From the IMG/VR virus record IMGVR_UViG_3300006030_001281, positions 1-21,839 of that record: a stretch of 21,839 nucleotides of DNA; one strand, given 5' to 3'. Source of the stretch: a virus. Positions 1,046 through 17,081 of this stretch are shown here, one piece after another. The first letter of the stretch is position 1. Every line of letters begins with the position of its first letter. The translations under genes were made by a program, and so were the position numbers. The notes under the pieces were generated by a model, which saw only the letters and a list, made by a program, of their open reading frames with translations, had not been told where the DNA came from and ran no database searches.

Positions 1046-2626
1046 TTAAGCCTCCTCTAAGGCAACTGCTGTAATCTTAATCTTCTTTATCTTAGGCAGA
1101 ACGCTCGTTCCGCTGTTTGAGAATGTGAATTGAAAACGTCTACCAACCGCATCATTCGGGAATGTATACACTCTCGTCTTATCCGCAGGGGTGGTTGTAA
1201 TGTAAGAAGTATTTACGATGAAAGTAGTATTAAGGTTATCTCCCGTAGCTGTAAGGTCTATGCTTTTAGACCCACTGTGCAACCCACGATCTGCATCCCA
1301 GAGAACAGACACTGCCCCGACTGTACCATAGAAACTGACTGTCATCTTGAGAAGCTTCATGCGGACATCATCAATGGGAAATTGTCCTCCAGATGCAAGA
1401 GCGAAATCTCTGGAAGAAAAAGTCTTGGTCTTATAGACCGCTAGAGTGTTCTGACCCTCATCTGAATTATCAGTTGTTTCAAGCTCATAAATCTTATCTT
1501 TCTGAGAAGACGCACAGTAAAACTCGTTATTGGAATACTGAAGCCTTGCGGGATACCCGAAGTTATCGGAGAGAGCTGTGTTCACGGGGCGATTCATCCA
1601 ACGCCCAAACTTCGCATCGTACACTCTCATGCGGTTAGGATACGTAACTCCTGAATTAGTCTCATTGTAAATAAGATAATACTTACGGTTACGGTAGAAT
1701 CCAAATATTCGCTTTGAGAAGTCAATGAGATCAACGAATACATCGTGGTTAAACTGAGTAAGTTCAGTGAAAGTATTTCCATCAAACAGAAATACTCCAA
1801 GAGTAGGACGGCGAGAAACAAAGTATACACCTTCGTTGCCTAGGGCTATGGAATACGGCGCACCACAACCACGAGAAGGAGTTCCGATTGCTCTGAAAGC
1901 AGTATTAGGGAAATTGCTTAAGGCATACGCCTTCTCTTCAGTGAATACTAACTGCTCGTTTCCAGAAGGAAAATCCATCACCATTCCCCTGGTATCCCCT
2001 GGGACATCGACGCTCCACGCATCGTTCGACAGACTCCACGCATCTGCCGCTGTCCAATTGCCTATCCCTGTTCTTGTACCATATACTCTGTAAGGATAAG
2101 TGGCCGACCCTTCTGCCGTGAGCCTGTTCTTATGCTTATAAATCCTAGCACAAGCCGTGGGGGGAACGCTAGCAGGGGTGGCAATTGCCACGCCCACTGC
2201 CTTCTTCTTAAGATTGTCCGTAGAGTTTGTGATCCATAGAAATCCACCAGTGTCTGAAACCCCGTGAGATAAAACGCCACTTGTGAATGCCCCGTTATCA
2301 TCGTTCGTGAATCCAGAACCATTTTTATAAATCAGATCTCCTTCAACGATTCCGTAGGTGTTAGTTCCTCCAGCGTCTTTATGCTGAATAAGCAGGTCTA
2401 GGGGATTGGTATAACTTGCCCCACCATCAGCGACCTCGTTGAACCCATTTGATCTCTGCATCCCACCAAGAGAAATCGCATCCCAGTTCTCAACGGTTCG
2501 TGCTTCTTCCGTCTTCATAGCTTGGTCTTCAGAGATGGTATTCTCACCGCCTGCAAAGGAAAGAATCTCTAGCGCAAGTTCCTGAAGCGAATATTTATCT
2601 AATACCGAATTATTAGAGAGTCCCAT
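1046..2626 (-). CDS. Tail tube/nozzle-type structural protein, probably beta-propeller
   Basis: A 526-residue virion protein. A short N-terminal helical part (about residues 1-60) is followed by many beta-rich segments. One of these reads RGCGAPYSIALGNEGVYFVS near residues 250-270 and recalls repeated blades in P22 gp10 / T7 gp12-like phage tail proteins. It lies directly after the head-tail adaptor, which is the usual place for a nozzle or tail-needle-docking protein of a short-tailed phage. The start ATG shares one base with the adaptor stop (TAATG), so translation is coupled. A long-tail or baseplate role is less likely because no tape-measure or sheath gene is in view. The family assignment is by pattern and gene order. 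Confidence 0.65.
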   Translation of the reverse strand: MGLSNNSVLDKYSLQELALEILSFAGGENTISEDQAMKTEEARTVENWDAISLGGMQRSNGFNEVADGGASYTNPLDLLIQHKDAGGTNTYGIVEGDLIYKNGSGFTNDDNGAFTSGVLSHGVSDTGGFLWITNSTDNLKKKAVGVAIATPASVPPTACARIYKHKNRLTAEGSATYPYRVYGTRTGIGNWTAADAWSLSNDAWSVDVPGDTRGMVMDFPSGNEQLVFTEEKAYALSNFPNTAFRAIGTPSRGCGAPYSIALGNEGVYFVSRRPTLGVFLFDGNTFTELTQFNHDVFVDLIDFSKRIFGFYRNRKYYLIYNETNSGVTYPNRMRVYDAKFGRWMNRPVNTALSDNFGYPARLQYSNNEFYCASSQKDKIYELETTDNSDEGQNTLAVYKTKTFSSRDFALASGGQFPIDDVRMKLLKMTVSFYGTVGAVSVLWDADRGLHSGSKSIDLTATGDNLNTTFIVNTSYITTTPADKTRVYTFPNDAVGRRFQFTFSNSGTSVLPKIKKIKITAVALEEA

Positions 2627-3306
2627 TAGTTCCCGAAGTCGTAACCCGTGCCTTGAGTGTCGTTAGTGAATCCGCCGATTGAGTTAACATCAGGGTTTGC
2701 GTAGTTCTTGTCAACGTATAGTCTTTCAGAGTAAGCCTGAGCATCCCTGACGTATTTTTGGTAGATCGCCATATATTTGTCTGAAATATCATTCTTCCCA
2801 ATCTGCATCATCAGTTGATAGGCGGCGTAATAAACAGAAGCCTCACGATACTCCTCTGGGAATAAACTCACATCGGAATCTGAGGATAGCTCAGTCGTTG
2901 GCTTCTTAATGTAATAAAGAGAGTAAGTCGTCCCGTTTGGAGATCCGAAGAATTTGATGTAGCGAACGGATGATTCCTCAGAGAAATAGTAAAGCGGTAC
3001 GCTTCCAGAGTATGAGTTCCATCTCTCATATTCCTTCACGCTAACTTCCCGGTCGTTCGTAAGGACTAGATCGTTCACAATCAAGCAGTAGATTTCCAAG
3101 AAATCTGTAGGAACAGTGATTGAACCACCGCTAACCGTCCCGGAAGTCTTCTCACGGAGATACTTAGTGTCCTTCGCAAAACACCACTCCCCACGGTTTA
3201 TAGCCTTCTTACGTTGAGCCAGTGGGAACTGATCGTCCGTCCCAGTATTACTATCTCCTAATAGTGAACTAAGAAGTGATTGTTGATCGCTGAATGTAAA
3301 ACTCAC
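2626..3306 (-). CDS. Head-tail adaptor protein (SU10/P22 gp4-like)
   Basis: A 226-residue protein expected to form the dodecameric ring below the portal and link it to the tail. The N-terminal part is helical with an AxNRGxW stretch near residues 35-41. It is followed by the GTVSGGSITVPTDF segment (56-69) that marks this adaptor family, a beta-rich middle, and a helical part with EEYREASVYYAAYQLM near 148-163. The start is GTG at 3306, overlapping the TGA of the GT-B gene (GTGA), with AAGGAG seven bases upstream. In related phages I would expect this gene close behind the capsid gene. Here it is separated from the capsid by about 5.7 kb of mostly sugar-related genes. Confidence 0.75.
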   Translation of the reverse strand: MSFTFSDQQSLLSSLLGDSNTGTDDQFPLAQRKKAINRGEWCFAKDTKYLREKTSGTVSGGSITVPTDFLEIYCLIVNDLVLTNDREVSVKEYERWNSYSGSVPLYYFSEESSVRYIKFFGSPNGTTYSLYYIKKPTTELSSDSDVSLFPEEYREASVYYAAYQLMMQIGKNDISDKYMAIYQKYVRDAQAYSERLYVDKNYANPDVNSIGGFTNDTQGTGYDFGN

Positions 3307-4448
3307 GATGTTACTCCTTCAGGCTTAAGAGCTTTCTCATAAGCCTCAATCCAAAGATGAGCTTTTGTGTTTGAATTGTGATTCTCTAAAACTTCTTCTT
3401 CCGCACGTTTCGCTAAGTTAATCCTCTTATGCTTATCTGAAATCAAGGAGTTAATTGAATCCACCCAGTCTTTCTTGTCTTCAGCTCCGCATAGAATCCC
3501 TGTTCTTCCGTTGTCAATGACTTTAGAGTACGGAGGAATGTTACTCGCCACCGTTGCCATTCCCATCAAGGAATACTCCATCCACTTAATCGCAGACTTA
3601 TTACGATTAAACACATTATCAACAAGAGGGCATAGGCCAATATCAATGTTCATAAGAGCGAGCTTGTAAGGATAAGTCGCATGACTTACCCACGGATGCC
3701 ATTCGATCTGATCTTGAGGGCAATCTTTAAATAGTCCAGTGAACCGCATATCCCCAAAGTATACGAACTTAGCTGTCTTATTTTTCTCTAGAACTTCCTT
3801 GATTACGTCTTTCAAGAAGTATAAGTCCTCATAATGGGAGGCTCCACCCTGCCAACCAAGCCTAACACCTTTCTTAACCATCTCAACATTACGAGGGAAA
3901 AAATCAGGGTCGATAAGATTAGGGAGAACAGCAACATTTGGATTTATCTTCAAAAACTCTTGACGAAGTTCTTCTGTGGTACAGGTCACTAAATCGCTCT
4001 TCTTGAAGTTCAAACGAAACATATCACGGTGGTTAATGTTGCGCTCAATGTCGAAGATTCGCTTCCCACCCGCCGACACCATCCCTTCGCTCCAAAGCAT
4101 TTCCTTAGTACCATCTGCCCAAGTCCACTCCACCTCTTCTGTCCCCGTATACTGATAGAAAGGATTCAGCGGAGAGGTGTTAAAAGGATCATCGTCGTAA
4201 TCACTGACAATCACCTTCCCATATTTTCTGCAAGTTTTGATGAAATTAAACCATGCCTCAGAAGCGGGTCTTTGGAACATAATGATGTCAGCCCATAAAG
4301 CCATCTGCGTGGCTTCGGGAGTCCCAAGCTGAGACTCCTTAAGGATGAAAACATCAGCCAACTTATTCTCATCGATCTTCACAAGAGGCTGAAGTACCCG
4401 GTAGTAGGAACAAGCCGTAGCATCACGTTCAATCCCTAGAATCTTCAC
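3303..4448 (-). CDS. GT-B fold glycosyltransferase (GT4-like)
   Basis: A 381-residue protein, the usual length of a family 4 glycosyltransferase, predicted to transfer a sugar from a nucleotide-sugar donor. The N-terminal Rossmann half begins MKILGIERD and contains SDYDDDPF (82-89). The C-terminal half has LGWQGGASHYEDL (197-209) and NKSAIKWMEYSLMGMATVAS (283-302), which matches the GT4 donor-binding region where a conserved Glu (here E291) contacts the nucleotide sugar. NGRTGILC (313-320) follows. The start is GTG at 4448, overlapping the TGA of the kinase fusion gene. Donor and acceptor cannot be read from sequence. It is the last gene of the sugar block before tail genes resume. Confidence 0.85.
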   Translation of the reverse strand: MKILGIERDATACSYYRVLQPLVKIDENKLADVFILKESQLGTPEATQMALWADIIMFQRPASEAWFNFIKTCRKYGKVIVSDYDDDPFNTSPLNPFYQYTGTEEVEWTWADGTKEMLWSEGMVSAGGKRIFDIERNINHRDMFRLNFKKSDLVTCTTEELRQEFLKINPNVAVLPNLIDPDFFPRNVEMVKKGVRLGWQGGASHYEDLYFLKDVIKEVLEKNKTAKFVYFGDMRFTGLFKDCPQDQIEWHPWVSHATYPYKLALMNIDIGLCPLVDNVFNRNKSAIKWMEYSLMGMATVASNIPPYSKVIDNGRTGILCGAEDKKDWVDSINSLISDKHKRINLAKRAEEEVLENHNSNTKAHLWIEAYEKALKPEGVTS

Positions 4449-5443
4449 GCAGACACACCCTTTTCTTCCAGTTCGTACTGGATTTGTTTAACTACACATC
4501 TCATAGAGTAATCATCATCAAATCCCCAGGAAGGCTTATTGGGATACCCTAGGCAGGAAGGGGCAGGTTTACTCTCAATCTCATCCACATACACAGACCA
4601 GCCAAAATCAATCAGCTTAATCACGCCGTCCTTAACAGTCAGGTTGTCAACCTTTAAATCTCTATGAATTATACCATGAATTTTTAAGTCTTGCATTATT
4701 TCAATTAGCTGTTCTCTCCAATTGTCAGGTATATAGGATAGAATCGGATATCCGCAATCTTCCATCGTGATAACATTTCCGTCATAGCCAAAGACCTTTG
4801 GGAAGTGCGGGGAGTTCGCATCTCTAAGTTTTTCATACTCATTTTGGATTAGCTTGTAACTCTTATAGTTCACTTGCTCTTTCTTGATTTTACCGTCTTC
4901 CTTGGTAACTAGAGCCGTTGCTCCTTTCCAATATCCGTTAAATGATCCCACAGATTTATCCTTTGGTGCTATCCACCCGATTGATGATTTCTTAAGTGCC
5001 TCAAGTAGTCCTTCCACAGAAGCATCACCAAGGAATCTCGTGTATTCCCTAGAGATATAATCCTTGTGATGGACGGCGTGATAAGCAAGAGCAATCCTAT
5101 GGTGGATTGGGTTTGGCGTATAGAATCCCTTAGAGTTCCACTCACGAGTCTCTAAGATTGCCCGTTCAAAGTCCTCAGGGTAATAGTCATCTCCGATATG
5201 CCTAACATCCACATAAACGTAGCTATCATCCACCGCTAGCTTCATCCTCACTCTTGGATACGGATATTCCGCTACAGCCTCAGGGAATATCTCTTTCCAA
5301 TGCTCAAAGTCTGCCACGAGCAAGTCTAAGTCAGAATGTTCACCAAGATTAAAGTCGTAGGGTAGACCGTCCCAATTACGGAGAACGACATACTCAAATG
5401 AAATATCATTCATATAAGCGAAAAACTGCTTTAGGCTTTGCAA
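4445..5443 (-). CDS. Nucleotidyltransferase-protein kinase fusion protein
   Basis: A 332-residue two-domain protein. Residues 1-150 look like a minimal nucleotidyltransferase: GEHSDLD (34-40) is the G-x2-S-D-x-D metal-binding signature, and D79 in VYVDVR is a candidate third carboxylate. Residues 160-325 look like a kinase of the protein-kinase/LPS-kinase superfamily: a loose glycine loop (GYWKG, 170-174), candidate ATP Lys K188, candidate helix-C Glu in NEYEKL (201-206), HRDLKVDN (260-267) with catalytic D262 and N267, and DFG (279-281). All core kinase catalytic residues appear present. The start is TTG at 5443 with AAGGAG eight bases upstream; it overlaps the WbqC gene by 13 bases. The substrate may be a sugar, lipid-linked glycan or protein. 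Heptose or Kdo kinases are possible relatives; this is inference. Confidence 0.75.
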   Translation of the reverse strand: MQSLKQFFAYMNDISFEYVVLRNWDGLPYDFNLGEHSDLDLLVADFEHWKEIFPEAVAEYPYPRVRMKLAVDDSYVYVDVRHIGDDYYPEDFERAILETREWNSKGFYTPNPIHHRIALAYHAVHHKDYISREYTRFLGDASVEGLLEALKKSSIGWIAPKDKSVGSFNGYWKGATALVTKEDGKIKKEQVNYKSYKLIQNEYEKLRDANSPHFPKVFGYDGNVITMEDCGYPILSYIPDNWREQLIEIMQDLKIHGIIHRDLKVDNLTVKDGVIKLIDFGWSVYVDEIESKPAPSCLGYPNKPSWGFDDDYSMRCVVKQIQYELEEKGVSA

Positions 5444-5982
5444 GATTTAAACTCCTTGTTAAGAATCTTTACAGTCCCATCAATTCCGTGGGACTCAAAC
5501 ATCTCAGGAAGTGATTTTCTGTACTCAGCTGGAGGATGACATGAAACCATCTCAATCCCTGCGTCATTTAATTCTTTCTCACTTAAATACTTGTCCGTAG
5601 CCTCAGGATTCGTAAGGTACTGATCGCAATTAAATCTCTTGCAAATCTCGATAATTCTCTCTGTTCCCTTAGATTCCGTTGGAAAATCGTAGTGAATCTT
5701 TGAGGTGTTAATACCAAGAGCCTTAGCCAATCCGATAATCAGCGGCATATTCACATCAATAAGTTTATTACCATTTGAATAATGCTTATCCTTAATCGCC
5801 ATCGTTCCGCCCGTCACTGGAACACTCCACCATTTATCCTTAACTAACGCACGATTCTGAAACCCGTTCTTTTCAAACTGACAATGGATCATAACAACGA
5901 ACACATCCGCCTTCGCCATCTTATAGAAGAACGGAAAATAAGGAAAAAAATTAGGCTGATGTATGGCTATCTTACCTGCCAC
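5431..5982 (-). CDS. WbqC-family protein
   Basis: About 183 residues from a GTG at 5982. It has the hallmark N-terminus of the WbqC family: KIAIHQPNFFPYFPFFYKMA, then ADVFVVMIHCQFEKNGFQNR. WbqC-like proteins are found in O-antigen, exopolysaccharide and amino-sugar loci; their exact chemistry is not settled to my knowledge. I prefer the GTG at 5982 because GAGG lies six bases upstream and the protein then begins like family members. A longer version from GTG at 5994 lacks a clear ribosome site. It overlaps the methyltransferase stop by 11 bases and is followed by the kinase fusion, supporting a shared glycan-related role. Confidence 0.8.
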   Translation of the reverse strand: MAGKIAIHQPNFFPYFPFFYKMAKADVFVVMIHCQFEKNGFQNRALVKDKWWSVPVTGGTMAIKDKHYSNGNKLIDVNMPLIIGLAKALGINTSKIHYDFPTESKGTERIIEICKRFNCDQYLTNPEATDKYLSEKELNDAGIEMVSCHPPAEYRKSLPEMFESHGIDGTVKILNKEFKSCKA

Positions 5983-6451
5983 GAAGAACCTCACTCAATC
6001 TCTTAAACATTCCCTCATCATCCGTAAGGGTTACCGTACTCATTTCGTCCGTCCATATTTGGAACTTGTACTCCAACACTGCTTCTCTGTATTGCTCACG
6101 ATCTGCGTCATGGAGCATAACCGGGCATCCAAGACATCGAACTTCCCTGAGACAAGCGGAGCGATTCCTTCCATCGACGAACACAAAATCTGTTTTCTTT
6201 TCAAGCTTTGTTTTTGCGTAGGTATCGAGATTTGGCTCGTAAACGAGCTTCGTGTTATCTGAGCAATTCCCCTTATTCTTTTCGTAATACTCCTTATCGT
6301 GTTCAACAGAAAGTAGCGAGACAACGCTAGGATACATTCCCATAATCTGAGTAGAAAATCCGCTCCCGAACTCAAGGACTGTCTCAGGCTTGAGAAGTTC
6401 CAGAACTTCATAGAGCGTTTCCTTGTAGCTGTCCCAACTTCTTGCCGACAA
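5972..6451 (-). CDS. Class I SAM-dependent methyltransferase
   Basis: A 159-residue compact Rossmann methyltransferase from a TTG start at 6451. Motif I is VLEFGSGFST (25-34), which binds S-adenosylmethionine. SVEHD (48-52) supplies the acidic residue at the end of strand 2, FVFVDGRNR (89-97) is the strand-4 motif, and LHDADR (113-118) follows. I chose TTG 6451 because TGGAGG sits exactly six bases upstream. The longer frame from an ATG at 6508 would overlap the deacetylase-like gene by about 100 bases. Class members near glycosyltransferases often methylate sugars, but the acceptor here is unknown; small-molecule or protein methylation is equally possible. Confidence 0.75.
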   Translation of the reverse strand: MSARSWDSYKETLYEVLELLKPETVLEFGSGFSTQIMGMYPSVVSLLSVEHDKEYYEKNKGNCSDNTKLVYEPNLDTYAKTKLEKKTDFVFVDGRNRSACLREVRCLGCPVMLHDADREQYREAVLEYKFQIWTDEMSTVTLTDDEGMFKRLSEVLRGR

Positions 6452-6968
6452 GATAATCCTCCAATTGTTCAGTAGTCCAACGCCAGGGATGCAGATACCA
6501 TTTCTCATGATTCAAATCAAACTTGTTATGCTCCATAGAAAGCCATCCGTCTGATAGTTTCTGGAGCTTAATTCCGTGATCCTTACAGATCATTTCAGTC
6601 TGCTGGTTCCATCTATTAAATGGCGGAACGAATATGTCCGTATCCAAGTACCTGCACGAACTCACAATGCTCATCTCTTGAGCATCGATTCCAATCCTTG
6701 AATGATCGCAGTGAATAAGACCATGAGATACCAGCTTGCGATTAAAAAGGTGAGGAAGGAAAGTTCTATCAACGTTATAAAAATATTCTTTAGGTTTGTC
6801 CTTAAACGGAACATCCGGGTAAACCGAATTAACGTTTGAAGACTTCGAGAACATATTAACCGCAAACCATATCTCAAGATTCGGAATCGCATCGTCTAGT
6901 ACCTTTATAAGATTGTTCATCTTATACACATTGGTGTTTGGGTTCACATCATCAAATCTGATTATCAT
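6408..6968 (-). CDS. Polysaccharide deacetylase-like hydrolase
   Basis: A 186-residue protein starting at ATG 6968, which overlaps the TGA of the GT-A gene (ATGA). It opens with IIRFDDVN, the N-terminal Asp-Asp motif of NodB/CE4 and DUF2334-like deacetylases (D6, D7). SHGLIHCDH (81-89) supplies metal-binding His residues (H82, H86), and VPPFNRW (114-120) matches the conserved PPxxR motif. HPWRW near 160 may give the catalytic His. The family removes acetyl groups from N-acetylated sugars. A longer frame up to 7097 exists, but its extra 43 residues are an out-of-frame reading of the upstream gene. At 186 residues the domain is short for the family, so some strands may be reduced. Confidence 0.7.
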   Translation of the reverse strand: MIIRFDDVNPNTNVYKMNNLIKVLDDAIPNLEIWFAVNMFSKSSNVNSVYPDVPFKDKPKEYFYNVDRTFLPHLFNRKLVSHGLIHCDHSRIGIDAQEMSIVSSCRYLDTDIFVPPFNRWNQQTEMICKDHGIKLQKLSDGWLSMEHNKFDLNHEKWYLHPWRWTTEQLEDYLVGKKLGQLQGNAL

Positions 6969-7654
6969 AACTCTGAACTCCATGCGATAGGTCTTCCGAC
7001 ATAAGATGAATAGGCTTGATGTTCTTCTGATTTGATGTGATTTTCGTGCTTCCCACTCCAATGGCCGATGTCTTGGACGGTTACATTCGGAAGCCAACCG
7101 ATCTTTGGTTCCTTCTCGACTATGATCTGATAGAGCAAACTAAACGCCCCCTTGATTCCTCTTGCGCTCATTCTTTCGAACTGAACGTCATCAAGTAGAC
7201 TCGTTCTCATAATCCAGAGTCCACCGACAATCTTGGAGGGGCGATAAGGAAGACCATCCTCATGTTTTCCATGAACGAACGCCGCATTAGAAGGCTCAAC
7301 ATTCGGAGAGAGAATATCAACATCCGTTGACTCAAACACTTTTACTACGTCATTAAGCCAGTTCACAGGAACCGCACAGTCATTATCGATCTTAGCGATA
7401 AGGTCAAATCTCTCATTCTTTGCCCAGTCAAAAAACCCAAGAATGCTCGATCTAAGTCCGTGATTTTCCTTAGAAATGATAGTGGTAGAATCAAGACTTG
7501 CGTTATTTAGAATATCAGAAGTACCATCCTGTGAGCCGTCATCAAGAAGATAGAACTCGCAATCCTTATACTCTTGCGCTTTTTCTAAAGCCTTGATGCA
7601 GATGGCTGTGTACTCAGGGCGTTTGAAGCAAGGGACAAATATACCGACCTTCAT
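6965..7654 (-). CDS. GT-A fold glycosyltransferase (family 2-like)
   Basis: A 229-residue glycosyltransferase that begins MKVGIFVPCFKRPEY, a typical family 2 N-terminus. DDGSQDGT (38-45) is the nucleotide-binding motif and KIDNDC (88-93) holds the D-x-D metal site (D90, D92) that positions the nucleotide-sugar. GGLWIMRTS near residues 144-152 is typical of the acceptor-side segment. It is soluble, with no membrane helix, so it probably acts in the cytoplasm. ATG 7654 overlaps the previous TGA (ATGA) and GAGG lies seven bases upstream. Together with the GT-B enzyme it gives the phage two sugar-transfer steps. Donor and acceptor are unknown. Confidence 0.85.
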   Translation of the reverse strand: MKVGIFVPCFKRPEYTAICIKALEKAQEYKDCEFYLLDDGSQDGTSDILNNASLDSTTIISKENHGLRSSILGFFDWAKNERFDLIAKIDNDCAVPVNWLNDVVKVFESTDVDILSPNVEPSNAAFVHGKHEDGLPYRPSKIVGGLWIMRTSLLDDVQFERMSARGIKGAFSLLYQIIVEKEPKIGWLPNVTVQDIGHWSGKHENHIKSEEHQAYSSYVGRPIAWSSEL

Positions 7655-8100
7655 AACTCTGCCTCAATTACCGCTTGACGTAAGGTCTTGTACTGATCCT
7701 TAGTCAGCTCTAAACGCAAGTCCCATAGCTTAAGATGAACATACTCCGGGTCTTCTAACTGTGCGCCCTCTGCAAATATCTTTCCGACATTCATAGAGTA
7801 GAGATTCTTATTCAAGTTAATCTTCACGGAATCTCCGCCAAGATTCTTAGAACCTACGACTTTCCTGCAAAGTTCAATGTGAGTACCCTCGGCTGGCTCA
7901 GGGCATCTGCGCTCATCCCAACGCCTAAGAGAATCCGCCATCCCCTTAGCCATTTCTTTCCAGTCTTCTAAGGAAAGGAGAATTCTTAGATTCTTGTAAT
8001 GAACGTGAACCGCCTCACAGATCTCCACAACAAATCTCTTGGGAAATATCTGCTCACCATCTAGCTTAGACTCTTTAAGATTCTCTATCGTCTGACCCAT
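7651..8100 (-). CDS. Conserved-looking protein with an internal duplication
   Basis: A 149-residue protein I cannot name. Two copies of a unit are visible: residues 31-51 (VHVHYKNLRILLSLEDWKEMA) and 121-141 (VHLKLWDLRLELTKDQYKTL and one more residue), in register at an offset of 90 residues, sharing V-H, L-R, L and K plus many conservative changes. Each unit reads as a beta hairpin followed by a helix. CPEPAEG (66-72) and FAEGAQLEDPEYVHL (109-123) are other notable stretches. It sits at the head of the sugar block, coupled to the GT-A gene by ATGA and to the 156-aa gene by TAATG, so a role in sugar metabolism or as a binding partner is possible but unproven. Confidence 0.65.
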   Translation of the reverse strand: MGQTIENLKESKLDGEQIFPKRFVVEICEAVHVHYKNLRILLSLEDWKEMAKGMADSLRRWDERRCPEPAEGTHIELCRKVVGSKNLGGDSVKINLNKNLYSMNVGKIFAEGAQLEDPEYVHLKLWDLRLELTKDQYKTLRQAVIEAEL

Positions 8101-8570
8101 TAGTTCAAAACCAAACCTTCCTGGGAATTACTCCCGTAGTATGCTTTTACTTTCATTAGAGTTTCCATCGGATCATCACCCCGAAGAATATTCTTCATGA
8201 ACTTTCTCCAGACCTTCTCATTCGCCTCTTCCCAAAAATCCGAATAGACAAGATTCACCATGAAAAGATAGAGTTCTTGCGGGATCTCATAATCAAACTT
8301 GAACTCTCCTTTTTCGCTCCATCCCATTGAGTCCGTATACTTTCCCTTCTTCCCAATCTGATTAAGCTCATCCCACTTAAGTTTATTCTGCCAACGAGTC
8401 ACTTCGCATAGGCGTGGAAAATCATCAATTCGATTCTCGCAGAACTTCTTATATACCAAGTTAATAAACTCAAGAGGGTTCTGCTTGGCAAGGCGAGGGT
8501 TTTCTTTTAAAGCCTCAGCTTGTGCATTCTCTCTTAAAGCCTCGTTTGACGAAGACTTAAAATCATCCAT
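8100..8570 (-). CDS. Hypothetical late protein, 156 residues
   Basis: Start chosen at ATG 8570, which shares its A with the TAA stop of the upstream gene; AGGAG lies about ten bases upstream. A longer frame to 8597 only adds nine residues read from the neighbouring gene. The protein is charged and helical. The N-terminal 40 residues are Glu, Lys, Asn and Ala-rich; the middle is rich in aromatics (FDYEIPQELYLFMVNLVYSD, about residues 90-109), followed by FWEEANEKVWRKF. No signal peptide, membrane segment or catalytic motif is visible. Position between a capsid-adjacent protein and the sugar block leaves its role open: a virion protein or an accessory factor for the block. Confidence 0.65.
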   Translation of the reverse strand: MDDFKSSSNEALRENAQAEALKENPRLAKQNPLEFINLVYKKFCENRIDDFPRLCEVTRWQNKLKWDELNQIGKKGKYTDSMGWSEKGEFKFDYEIPQELYLFMVNLVYSDFWEEANEKVWRKFMKNILRGDDPMETLMKVKAYYGSNSQEGLVLN

Positions 8571-8968
8571 TAAATAGCTTCTCCTGAAGCGGTGCAAGAA
8601 CCAGTCGCTTGGGTTGTAGCCGCACCGTCCACTGTCACATTCAGAGCTGTGTTAGCAGAAAGAATGTAACCATTAGGAGCAAGATTGAATGAGTAAACAG
8701 CTACGGCATCAGCATCAGCTTGAAAGATTCGAGTTCCATTGGCCCCATTTTCTAAAGCAATTTCTCCACCACTACCAACAGCCGCAACCTCAACAGCGCA
8801 TACAACAGAAAGAACTCTAATCGAAACACCCGCACCCTGAGCGGGGATTACGCTGGCATCAACCGAACCGTTAGAAACACCAGCCGTACCATAAACGGTA
8901 CGTCCATCAGCAAACACATCTGAGCTTAAAATCATCAAAGCAACCAACACCATCAAAAGTTTTTTCAT
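8570..8968 (-). CDS. Small exported or decoration-like protein with Sec signal peptide
   Basis: A 132-residue protein. Residues 1-20 are a textbook Sec signal peptide: MKK, a hydrophobic core, and a VFA cleavage site before Asp21. There is no lipobox Cys. The mature part (about 112 residues) is small-residue-rich with alternating hydrophobics, as in one beta-sandwich domain. Two Cys residues (one near 57 in SVVCAVEV, one near the C-terminus in GSCTASG) could form a disulfide, fitting export to the periplasm or surface. The gene lies directly after the capsid gene, where decoration proteins are usual. It follows AGGAG with a six-to-seven-base spacing. Without the signal it would be called a decoration protein. 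Confidence 0.7.
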   Translation of the reverse strand: MKKLLMVLVALMILSSDVFADGRTVYGTAGVSNGSVDASVIPAQGAGVSIRVLSVVCAVEVAAVGSGGEIALENGANGTRIFQADADAVAVYSFNLAPNGYILSANTALNVTVDGAATTQATGSCTASGEAI

Positions 8969-16481: not shown

Positions 16482-17081
16482 ATGGAAACTCTAGAACTAT
16501 CGCCAAAAGTAAGCTTTGGCAATAAGAAACTCCCAAAAGATACATTGATTTTTAATATTCCCGCCGTGAAGACTTGCCCGGGAAAAACGGCTCTTTGTTC
16601 TAAAGACTGCTATGCATTAAAGGCCGAAAGACTTTACCCGCAAGTATACCCAGCAAGAAAGCATAATCTTAAATTGACTATGAGCAATAATTTTCCGTCT
16701 TTAATGATTGGAATTATTCAAAAGAATCAGAAGAAAATTAAACAAGTAAGAATTCACGAGGCCGGGGATTTTTATAGTCAAGCTTACTTAGATAATTGGT
16801 TCTTAATTGCTAAAGAATTCCCGGGTTTGACGTTTTATGCATACACTAAGTCTTTCCACTTAGATTTTAGCGGGAAGCCGTCAAACTTTGTCCTTATAGC
16901 GTCTTTCGATGAATCATCTACCATGAGAGACAAAGGCCTATATGAATTCCGCAAGGCCTATTTTAATAATACCTTTACGATCGTCGACAAGAAAGCCCAA
17001 GCTTCATGCATCCAGGACTGTACTGCTTGCAATGCCTGTTGGAAATCTTCAGGGCTTAATATAACCGTCAATAAACATTAA
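16482..17081 (+). CDS. GP88-like cysteine-rich phage protein
   Basis: A 199-residue protein with the pattern I recognise from the mycobacteriophage GP88-type family of unknown function. CPGKTALCSKDCYA gives C32, C39 and C43. RIHEAGDFYS (90-99) and FYAYTKS (118-124) are the conserved core. A C-terminal group C-x3-C-x2-C-x2-C (C176, C180, C183, C186) follows. Seven clustered Cys suggest an iron-sulfur cluster or zinc sites; the H-E-A-G-D motif looks catalytic. GAGAGAGG lies upstream of ATG 16482. It may act in nucleotide or DNA metabolism given its neighbours, but no reaction can be assigned. Confidence 0.7.
   Translation: METLELSPKVSFGNKKLPKDTLIFNIPAVKTCPGKTALCSKDCYALKAERLYPQVYPARKHNLKLTMSNNFPSLMIGIIQKNQKKIKQVRIHEAGDFYSQAYLDNWFLIAKEFPGLTFYAYTKSFHLDFSGKPSNFVLIASFDESSTMRDKGLYEFRKAYFNNTFTIVDKKAQASCIQDCTACNACWKSSGLNITVNKH

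What the first reader, a model, noticed from the sequence alone, without database searches (positions are those of the whole stretch)
4445..5443. Nucleotidyltransferase fused to an intact-looking protein kinase
A GxxSDxD nucleotidyltransferase domain is followed by a kinase domain with HRD-x-K-x2-N and DFG, all catalytic residues present. Fusing nucleotide transfer and phosphorylation in a phage sugar block suggests activation and phosphorylation of a sugar or lipid-glycan intermediate, or regulation of neighbouring enzymes. I know of no described phage enzyme of this architecture.
Basis: partly seen in the sequence, partly recalled or inferred. Interest (0 to 1): 0.7.

Follow-up and report, generated by a model that had tools for sequence, protein, structure and literature searches.

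The report
Phage enzyme joining transferase and kinase
A phage gene inside a sugar-building block makes one protein that joins a nucleotide-transfer domain to a kinase domain, and its relatives suggest that it puts a phosphate-linked cap on sugar chains.

Summary
Window 4445-5443 (minus strand) encodes a 332-residue protein: a PolB-type nucleotidyltransferase (NTase) domain followed by a short RIO-like kinase. Predicted models match NTases and kinases respectively. In 19 of 19 distinct full-length relatives the NTase acids (D38, D40, D79) and kinase residues (K188, E202, H260, D262, N267, D279-F280-G281) are kept. The gene sits in a capsid-adjacent glycan block; WbqC-like upstream and GT4 downstream in 22 of 22 loci.

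Relatives point to glycan capping. The same kinase is fused to a methyltransferase in other phages, and that pair has WbdD, the O9a methyl-phosphate cap enzyme, as its best solved match. A Patescibacteria chromosome has NTase-kinase plus a likely coiled coil beside wzm/wzt-type genes and glycosyltransferases, the layout of WbdD-type chain terminators. One phage contig fuses the NTase to an unrelated, CTP-dependent-riboflavin-kinase-like domain.

Best reading: a glycan kinase whose partner domain is an NTase instead of a methyltransferase, installing a phosphate-linked cap on glycan made by the neighbouring enzymes (confidence 0.5). Donor, acceptor and target (virion or host surface) are unknown. 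Synthesis of a nucleotide-sugar donor is the main rival.

The parts
4445..5443 (-). NTase-kinase fusion gene, 332 aa, TTG start
   Evidence: ORF; identical in L001 and L002; 19 distinct family members
4964..5443 (-). Nucleotidyltransferase half (residues 1-160)
   Evidence: AF2 model pLDDT 73.6, pTM 0.70; VIA best MenT1 Z 9.4, TM1012 Z 8.7, LnuA Z 8.3, ANT(2'')-Ia Z 7.3, FKRP Z 6.8
5330..5332 (-). Codon of catalytic acid D38
   Evidence: 19 of 19
5324..5326 (-). Codon of catalytic acid D40
   Evidence: 19 of 19
5207..5209 (-). Codon of third acid D79
   Evidence: 19 of 19; D-x-R-x-x-[GD]-D motif found in 27 of 27 proteins including distant ones
4448..4951 (-). RIO-like kinase half (residues 165-332)
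   Evidence: RIO1 above cut-off; VIA RIO2 Z 15.3, Ark1 Z 13.8
4880..4882 (-). Codon of K188, presumed ATP-binding lysine
   Evidence: 19 of 19; role inferred
4838..4840 (-). Codon of E202, presumed helix C glutamate
   Evidence: 19 of 19; role inferred
4643..4666 (-). Catalytic loop H260-N267 (HRDLKVDN)
   Evidence: H260, D262, N267 19 of 19; R261 18 of 19; K264 11 of 19
4601..4609 (-). DFG motif 279-281
   Evidence: 19 of 19
3303..4448 (-). GT4-type glycosyltransferase, next gene downstream
   Evidence: Glyco_trans_1_4 6.5e-11; present downstream in 22 of 22 loci
5431..5994 (-). WbqC-like protein, next gene upstream
   Evidence: WbqC 1.5e-24; present upstream in 22 of 22 loci
5972..6508 (-). 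Methyltransferase-like gene, variable part of block
   Evidence: Methyltransf_24 0.016, below cut-off; 8 of 22 loci
6408..7097 (-). DUF2334-like (weak) gene, variable part of block
   Evidence: DUF2334 E 0.19, below cut-off; 10 of 22 loci
6965..7654 (-). GT2 glycosyltransferase
   Evidence: Glycos_transf_2 4.3e-18; 19 of 22 loci, the three without it being truncated upstream
7651..8100 (-). 149-aa gene whose relative is fused to the NTase in L039 and L082
9029..9952 (-). Major capsid protein upstream of the block
   Evidence: phrog_1328 9.4e-51
2626..3306 (-). SU10-type head-tail adaptor downstream of the block
   Evidence: PF24175 3.1e-17

Best explanation
A two-domain glycan-capping enzyme. 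Step 1 (inferred): the kinase half phosphorylates a hydroxyl, most likely on the outermost sugar of a glycan built by the neighbouring GT2, WbqC-like and GT4 proteins. Step 2 (inferred): the NTase half, in the place of WbdD's methyltransferase, finishes the cap by moving a nucleotidyl group, or a phospho-linked group carried on a CDP-type donor, onto that phosphate or sugar. The product would end or tag the glycan. In the phage the block lies between major capsid and head-tail genes, so virion glycan is the likelier target, host surface glycan the alternative. Shown here: fusion, both folds (as predicted models), invariant catalytic residues, purifying selection, conserved setting, homology to a chromosomal enzyme in a polysaccharide-export locus. 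Not shown: any activity, donor, acceptor or product.
For: Same kinase fused to a SAM methyltransferase-like domain in L062 and L063; hhalign of the kinase family (A5) to L062 prob 99.9, 130 columns, 36% identity; the L062+L063 profile finds WbdD first among solved structures, E 2e-9, by the methyltransferase and, weakly and in the same order, the kinase loop. WbdD phosphorylates the terminal mannose, then methylates the phosphate (PMC3482155: abstract and passages read). L088, 684 aa on a 334-kb Patescibacteria contig: NTase and kinase colinear with our family over 316 columns, prob 99.7, then a heptad-patterned tail (16 of 2000 shuffles as good, residues 611-660), in the order ABC-2 permease, ABC ATPase with Wzt_C-like end (28.9-29.2 bits, cut-off 30.4), NTase-kinase, RgpF, GT. 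L040 fuses GT2, NTase and a CTP-dependent-riboflavin-kinase-like domain (1.5e-8, above cut-off): a second, unrelated kinase on the same NTase. L039 and L082 have kinase and NTase as adjacent genes. Mycobacteriophage Minerva has a lone relative of the kinase (hhalign prob 96.4) between glycosyltransferase and methyltransferase genes just after the capsid gene.
Against: No activity is known for any member. Only one cellular hit (L088) has both domains; in L096-L099 (L096 and L097 near copies) the NTase sits in what look like polysaccharide gene clusters without a fused kinase, so the two steps are not obligatorily coupled. The phage protein lacks a coiled coil and its block has no ABC transporter. 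The match of WbdD itself to the phage kinase loop is weak (domain i-Evalue 2.8). The NTase fold match is modest (best Foldseek E 4e-3). The L040 type rests on one complete contig (the match in L065 ends near the end of that locus). Distances of the two halves correlate only moderately (Spearman 0.42, 171 pairs).
Confidence: 0.5

Rival explanations
1. Donor synthesis: the kinase makes a sugar or alditol phosphate and the NTase turns it into an NDP-activated donor for the neighbouring GT4 and GT2, as FKP does for fucose with unrelated domains.
For: Kinase plus NTase in one chain is the logic of FKP (PMC11982464, abstract read). No other sugar-nucleotide gene was recognised in the window's block. 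NTase also fused to a small-molecule-type kinase in L040. GT4 adjacent in 22 of 22 loci.
Against: L088 has a coiled-coil-like tail and lies by Wzt, a polymer-capping setting. The kinase's other partner is a methyltransferase, which suits a cap, not a donor. NTase occurs without kinase in clusters that contain rml-like genes (gene names there are from a look at the sequence, recalled).
Confidence: 0.27
2. The kinase regulates the NTase (cis or trans phosphorylation), as TakA silences the NTase toxin TglT, or acts as a protein kinase on virion or host proteins.
For: The NTase half resembles MenT and TglT NTases. TakA phosphorylates TglT at S78 in the active site (PMC7205606, abstract and passages read).
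Against: The only near-equivalent serine, S37, is glycine in 2 of 19 family members and in L088, L096-L098 and L040. C-lobe cut short, no long activation segment. Glycan neighbours in every block that is not truncated. An unrelated riboflavin-kinase-like domain in L040 would not regulate.
Confidence: 0.12
3. The NTase half is a LicD/FKRP-type transferase that moves phospho-ribitol, phospho-glycerol or phosphocholine from a CDP donor, and the kinase adds a separate phosphate.
For: FKRP is among the fold matches (6kal Z 6.8, rmsd 5.4, 125 aligned).
Against: No LicD match listed in Pfam up to E 1; FKRP ranks below MenT1, TM1012, LnuA and ANT(2'')-Ia.
Confidence: 0.12
4. RNA repair or tRNA modification: RNA kinase (Ark1-like) plus CCA-type NTase used against host defence.
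For: Ark1 8yv5 Z 13.8; CCA-adding enzymes among weak Foldseek rows.
Against: Z is tied with many protein kinases; no RNA-binding domain seen; fixed place among glycan enzymes; GT2-NTase fusion in L040.
Confidence: 0.04

Closest known systems
WbdD (E. coli O9a chain-terminating kinase-methyltransferase; PDB 4azs, 4uw0)
   Same: Protein-kinase-fold glycan kinase behind a second transferase domain; short activation segment; cellular homologue L088 adds a coiled-coil-like tail and Wzt-type neighbour in the same order
   Different: Partner is an NTase, not a methyltransferase; phage form has no coiled coil; kinase closest to RIO models among the rows shown
phrog_3297 kinase (Omegavirus mycobacteriophages, Minerva gp15)
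   Same: Related small kinase in a capsid-adjacent block with glycosyltransferases and a methyltransferase
   Different: Stand-alone, 164 aa, no NTase
FKP (fucokinase/GDP-fucose pyrophosphorylase)
   Same: Kinase and nucleotidyl transfer in one chain serving glycan synthesis
   Different: Unrelated folds (recalled for the fold classes), 949 aa; its pyrophosphorylase, like our NTase, is N-terminal
TakA-TglT toxin-antitoxin pair and MenT NTases
   Same: NTase fold resembles MenT1 and TglT; a kinase is paired with an NTase
   Different: Site serine not conserved; fused, in a glycan block; TakA belongs to another kinase type (abstract calls it atypical)
Pfam PF14907 NTP_transf_5
   Same: Best Pfam family for the NTase half
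   Different: 16.0 bits against a cut-off of 31.2

Membership tests
PolB-type nucleotidyltransferase superfamily | D-x-D plus a third acid on a later strand | tested here: met
   D38, D40, D79 19 of 19; D-x-D motif and D-x-R motif found in 27 of 27
PolB-type nucleotidyltransferase superfamily | NTase fold | tested here: met
   Predicted model only; leading VIA rows are NTases, best Z 9.4
PF14907 NTP_transf_5 | Score above curated cut-off | tested here: not met
   16.0 vs 31.2 bits; 2 of 14 members match at E 0.1
Protein-kinase fold | Lys, Glu, HxD, Asn, DFG residues and fold | tested here: met
   (19 of 19); VIA Z 15.3 to RIO2
Canonical Ser/Thr protein kinases | Lys of HRD-x-K and full C-lobe | tested here: not met
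   K264 in 11 of 19; 51 residues after DFG
RIO1 (PF01163) | Score above curated cut-off | tested here: met
   26 vs 22 bits for the window protein; 7 of 14 members match at E 0.1
WbdD chain terminators | Methyltransferase domain before the kinase | tested here: not met
   NTase in its place; methyltransferase present in L062 and probably L063
WbdD chain terminators | C-terminal coiled coil | tested here: not met
   Window protein ends in the kinase; coiled-coil-like tail only in L088
WbdD chain terminators | Phosphorylates the end of a glycan | not testable with these tools
   Needs an assay
LicD/FKRP transferases | Use of CDP-alditol or CDP-choline | not testable with these tools
   Fold row Z 6.8 only
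TakA-TglT toxin-antitoxin | Phospho-acceptor serine in the NTase active site | tested here: not met
   S37 17 of 19, G in 2, G also in L088, L096-L098, L040

The most novel reading that the evidence does not exclude
A new class of glycan terminator: the kinase phosphorylates the end of the chain and the fused NTase caps that phosphate with a nucleotidyl or other phosphate-linked group, used by bacteria for ABC-exported polysaccharides and by phages to cap glycan on their own virions, with the second enzyme (methyltransferase or NTase) and even the kinase exchanged between lineages.
Probability: 0.3. Interest if true: 0.8.

Novelty: new variant of a known kind. Interest (0 to 1): 0.6.

Why it matters
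[quoted passage not shown] This family gives a single enzyme, with predicted active sites and mutable residues, by which that can be tested. It also predicts a glycan cap that is neither methyl phosphate nor a sugar, and links the phage enzyme to a gene of unassigned function in a bacterial polysaccharide-export locus.

Tried and rejected
Close isolates: tblastn of the window protein in 50,697 phage records gave nothing at E 0.01 and, at E 10, 59 records of which the 40 listed match in the kinase part (kinase half alone, 60 records; NTase half alone, 4 records at E 6). L040, L062 and L063 proteins: no match. Plasmids: two weak kinase matches.

Defence reading: PADLOC matches (PD-T4-6 and others) cover only the kinase part, the level any kinase would give; not pursued.

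OspG-type effector kinase: weak Pfam matches below cut-off and 4bvu among Foldseek rows; shared minimal fold only.

L100 (G501), the sixth hit, looks like an ordinary protein kinase and is not counted. L061 is a truncated kinase piece of the family and was left out of the 19. L021 and L087 are one contig, binned in a Parcubacteria MAG under a title with 'viral-cat'; read as phage because it carries the same block. G003 is that MAG, so the cellular count there is 1 of 286, and 5 of 392, G267 being the same genome in both.

WbqC function: paper search gave nothing useful (listing only). The first structure job used only 8 sequences; whole-model Foldseek therefore saw mainly the kinase, and the NTase half was modelled apart. 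LicD was not listed by Pfam up to E 1; WbdD does not stand among the 50 VIA rows shown, which excludes nothing.

Paper searches on architecture: (listings read; WbdD, Klebsiella O7, Cluster J, TglT and FKP papers opened at abstract, passages or one section).

Full report
What is there. Window 4445-5443, minus strand, is one open frame of 332 residues from a TTG. Its start lines up with the first residue of its relatives. The window is an IMG/VR record of 21,839 bases. The N-terminal half carries G34-x-x-S37-D38-x-D40 and a later acid D79; the C-terminal half carries K188, E202, HRD-x-K-x-x-N and DFG. Pfam gives RIO1 above its cut-off, Pkinase a hair below, and NTP_transf_5 well below.

Folds. 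The whole-protein model (pLDDT 78.6, pTM 0.54) matches RIO2, RIO1, Bud32 and many protein kinases (Foldseek), over residues 166-332 in the VIA rows (RIO2 1tqi Z 15.3, rmsd 2.7, 140 aligned; Ark1 RNA kinase 8yv5 Z 13.8, rmsd 2.8, 132 aligned). The NTase half, modelled alone (pLDDT 73.6, pTM 0.70), gives only modest Foldseek values (best 4e-3, ANT(2'')-Ia) but VIA's leading rows are nucleotidyltransferases: MenT1 Z 9.4 (rmsd 3.9, 116 aligned), TM1012 8.7, LnuA 8.3, ANT(2'')-Ia 7.3, TglT 7.1, FKRP 6.8. Values near 8 can be a common arrangement; the agreement with the conserved acids is what makes the call firm.

Family. Scans of viral contigs and of 84,980 species genomes gave 22 loci with the full-length protein, 19 distinct sequences counting the window. 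All keep D38, D40, D79, K188, E202, H260, D262, N267 and DFG; K264 varies (11 of 19 K). Both halves are under purifying selection. The one genome hit, L021, is a contig titled 'viral-cat' in a Parcubacteria MAG and carries the phage block.

Setting. In 22 of 22 loci a WbqC-like gene lies upstream and a GT4 gene downstream; the adaptor is found in 21 of 22 (the other stretch ends first); major capsid, GT2 and two small genes in 19 of 22 (the other three are truncated upstream); DUF2334-like and methyltransferase genes in 10 and 8 of 22. So GT2, WbqC, NTase-kinase and GT4 are the constant core and the rest varies. The capsid protein is distantly like those of many isolates (147 records, all under 60% identity). 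A Manatee Spring podophage has a similar capsid-adjacent block with GT4 and 'nodB-like' genes; no NTase-kinase is annotated in it.

The parts recombine. Kinase: in L062 and L063 it follows a methyltransferase-like domain (Pfam support in L062; in L063 only weak solved-structure matches and alignment to L062). The two-sequence profile A7 finds WbdD first among solved structures (E 2e-9; the methyltransferase domain scores 27.9 bits, the kinase loop 9.8 bits, in the same order). In Omegavirus mycobacteriophages the related kinase (phrog_3297) stands alone beside a methyltransferase gene, close after the major capsid gene. The Cluster J authors noted these genes and asked whether the targets are viral or host. 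NTase: in L039 and L082 it is fused behind a domain related to window ORF 7651-8100, with a separate 155-158-aa kinase gene directly upstream. In L040 it is part of an 861-aa protein with GT2 before it and a CTP-dependent-riboflavin-kinase-like domain after it (E 1.5e-8, above cut-off). NTase and kinase thus meet as a fusion, as neighbours, and, with an unrelated kinase-like fold, as another fusion.

Cellular relatives. In a Patescibacteria genome (G267, 334-kb contig; group taken from the MAG title of L021, whose phylum was searched) L088 encodes a 684-aa protein: an N-terminal domain shared with L040 (30% identity over 299 aligned columns that include the NTase, E 4e-34), NTase, kinase, and a heptad-patterned tail. 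Its operon reads ABC-2 permease, ABC ATPase with a Wzt_C-like end (below cut-off), this gene, RgpF, GT. In the class of that genome 6 of 392 genomes matched; one looks like an ordinary kinase (L100), leaving 5, of which four (L096-L099; L096 and L097 near copies) have an N-terminal region plus NTase without a fused kinase, in clusters that look like polysaccharide genes (these neighbours were named from a look at the sequence, not by a family search). In the first phylum sample 2 of 286 matched, one being the phage-bearing MAG.

Mechanism. WbdD phosphorylates the last mannose and then methylates the phosphate; its domains run methyltransferase, kinase, coiled coil, and terminators with a different methyltransferase-kinase pair exist (Klebsiella O7; PMC11231755, passages read). 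L088 has the same order with an NTase in front. By this parallel the phage protein most likely phosphorylates a glycan and completes a cap through its NTase. This is inference: no member has been assayed. The four cellular NTases without kinase show that the NTase has a use of its own. The main rival, making an NDP-sugar for GT4, is not excluded. Regulation by phosphorylation at the active-site serine, as in TakA-TglT, is disfavoured because S37 is glycine in 2 of 19 family members and in L088, L096-L098 and L040.

Novelty. No phage record matched over both halves and none of the papers listed shows such an enzyme by title or abstract; the full texts of those lists were not read, apart from the passages named. 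I rate it a new variant of a known kind (kinase-plus-transferase glycan cap enzymes). It is not filed as a WbdD member because two defining features were tested and not met.

Noticed in passing
window 7651-8100; L039 5575-6492; L082 5626-6543: The 149-aa protein has two similar stretches (HYKNLRI / HLKLWDLRLEL) and a relative of it is the N-terminal part of the NTase protein in L039 and L082, which hints that it works with the NTase.
   Followed up: partly
window 8570-8968; L007 1313-1684 and 1689-2216: Small proteins with signal-peptide-like starts lie in or beside the sugar block; if exported, the target of the block could be the host surface.
   Followed up: no
L003 5512-5997; L007 1689-2216; L087 1067-1501: A small, probably beta-rich protein family sits between WbqC and the NTase-kinase gene in some phages; looks like a virion decoration or fibre part.
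   Followed up: no
L040 4204-6789, residues 757-856: Domain like archaeal CTP-dependent riboflavin kinase (PF01982, above cut-off) at the end of a phage GT2-NTase protein.
   Followed up: partly
L088, L040, L096-L098 N-terminal parts: A domain without a Pfam match precedes the NTase in bacterial and one phage protein (conserved run ending WTGGGHRVHGSN-like in L096-L098); function unknown.
   Followed up: partly
L009 4206-5385; L010 3623-4802: In place of the DUF2334-like and methyltransferase genes these phages carry a dehydrogenase-like and a hexapeptide-acetyltransferase-like gene (named from a look at the sequence).
   Followed up: no
window 16482-17081: Cysteine-rich 199-aa protein that resembles phage gp88-like radical SAM proteins (recalled).
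   Followed up: no
L039 7614-8207; L082 7129-7722: Conserved 197-aa protein in the same sugar block with no Pfam or PHROG match (L039 copy searched).
   Followed up: partly
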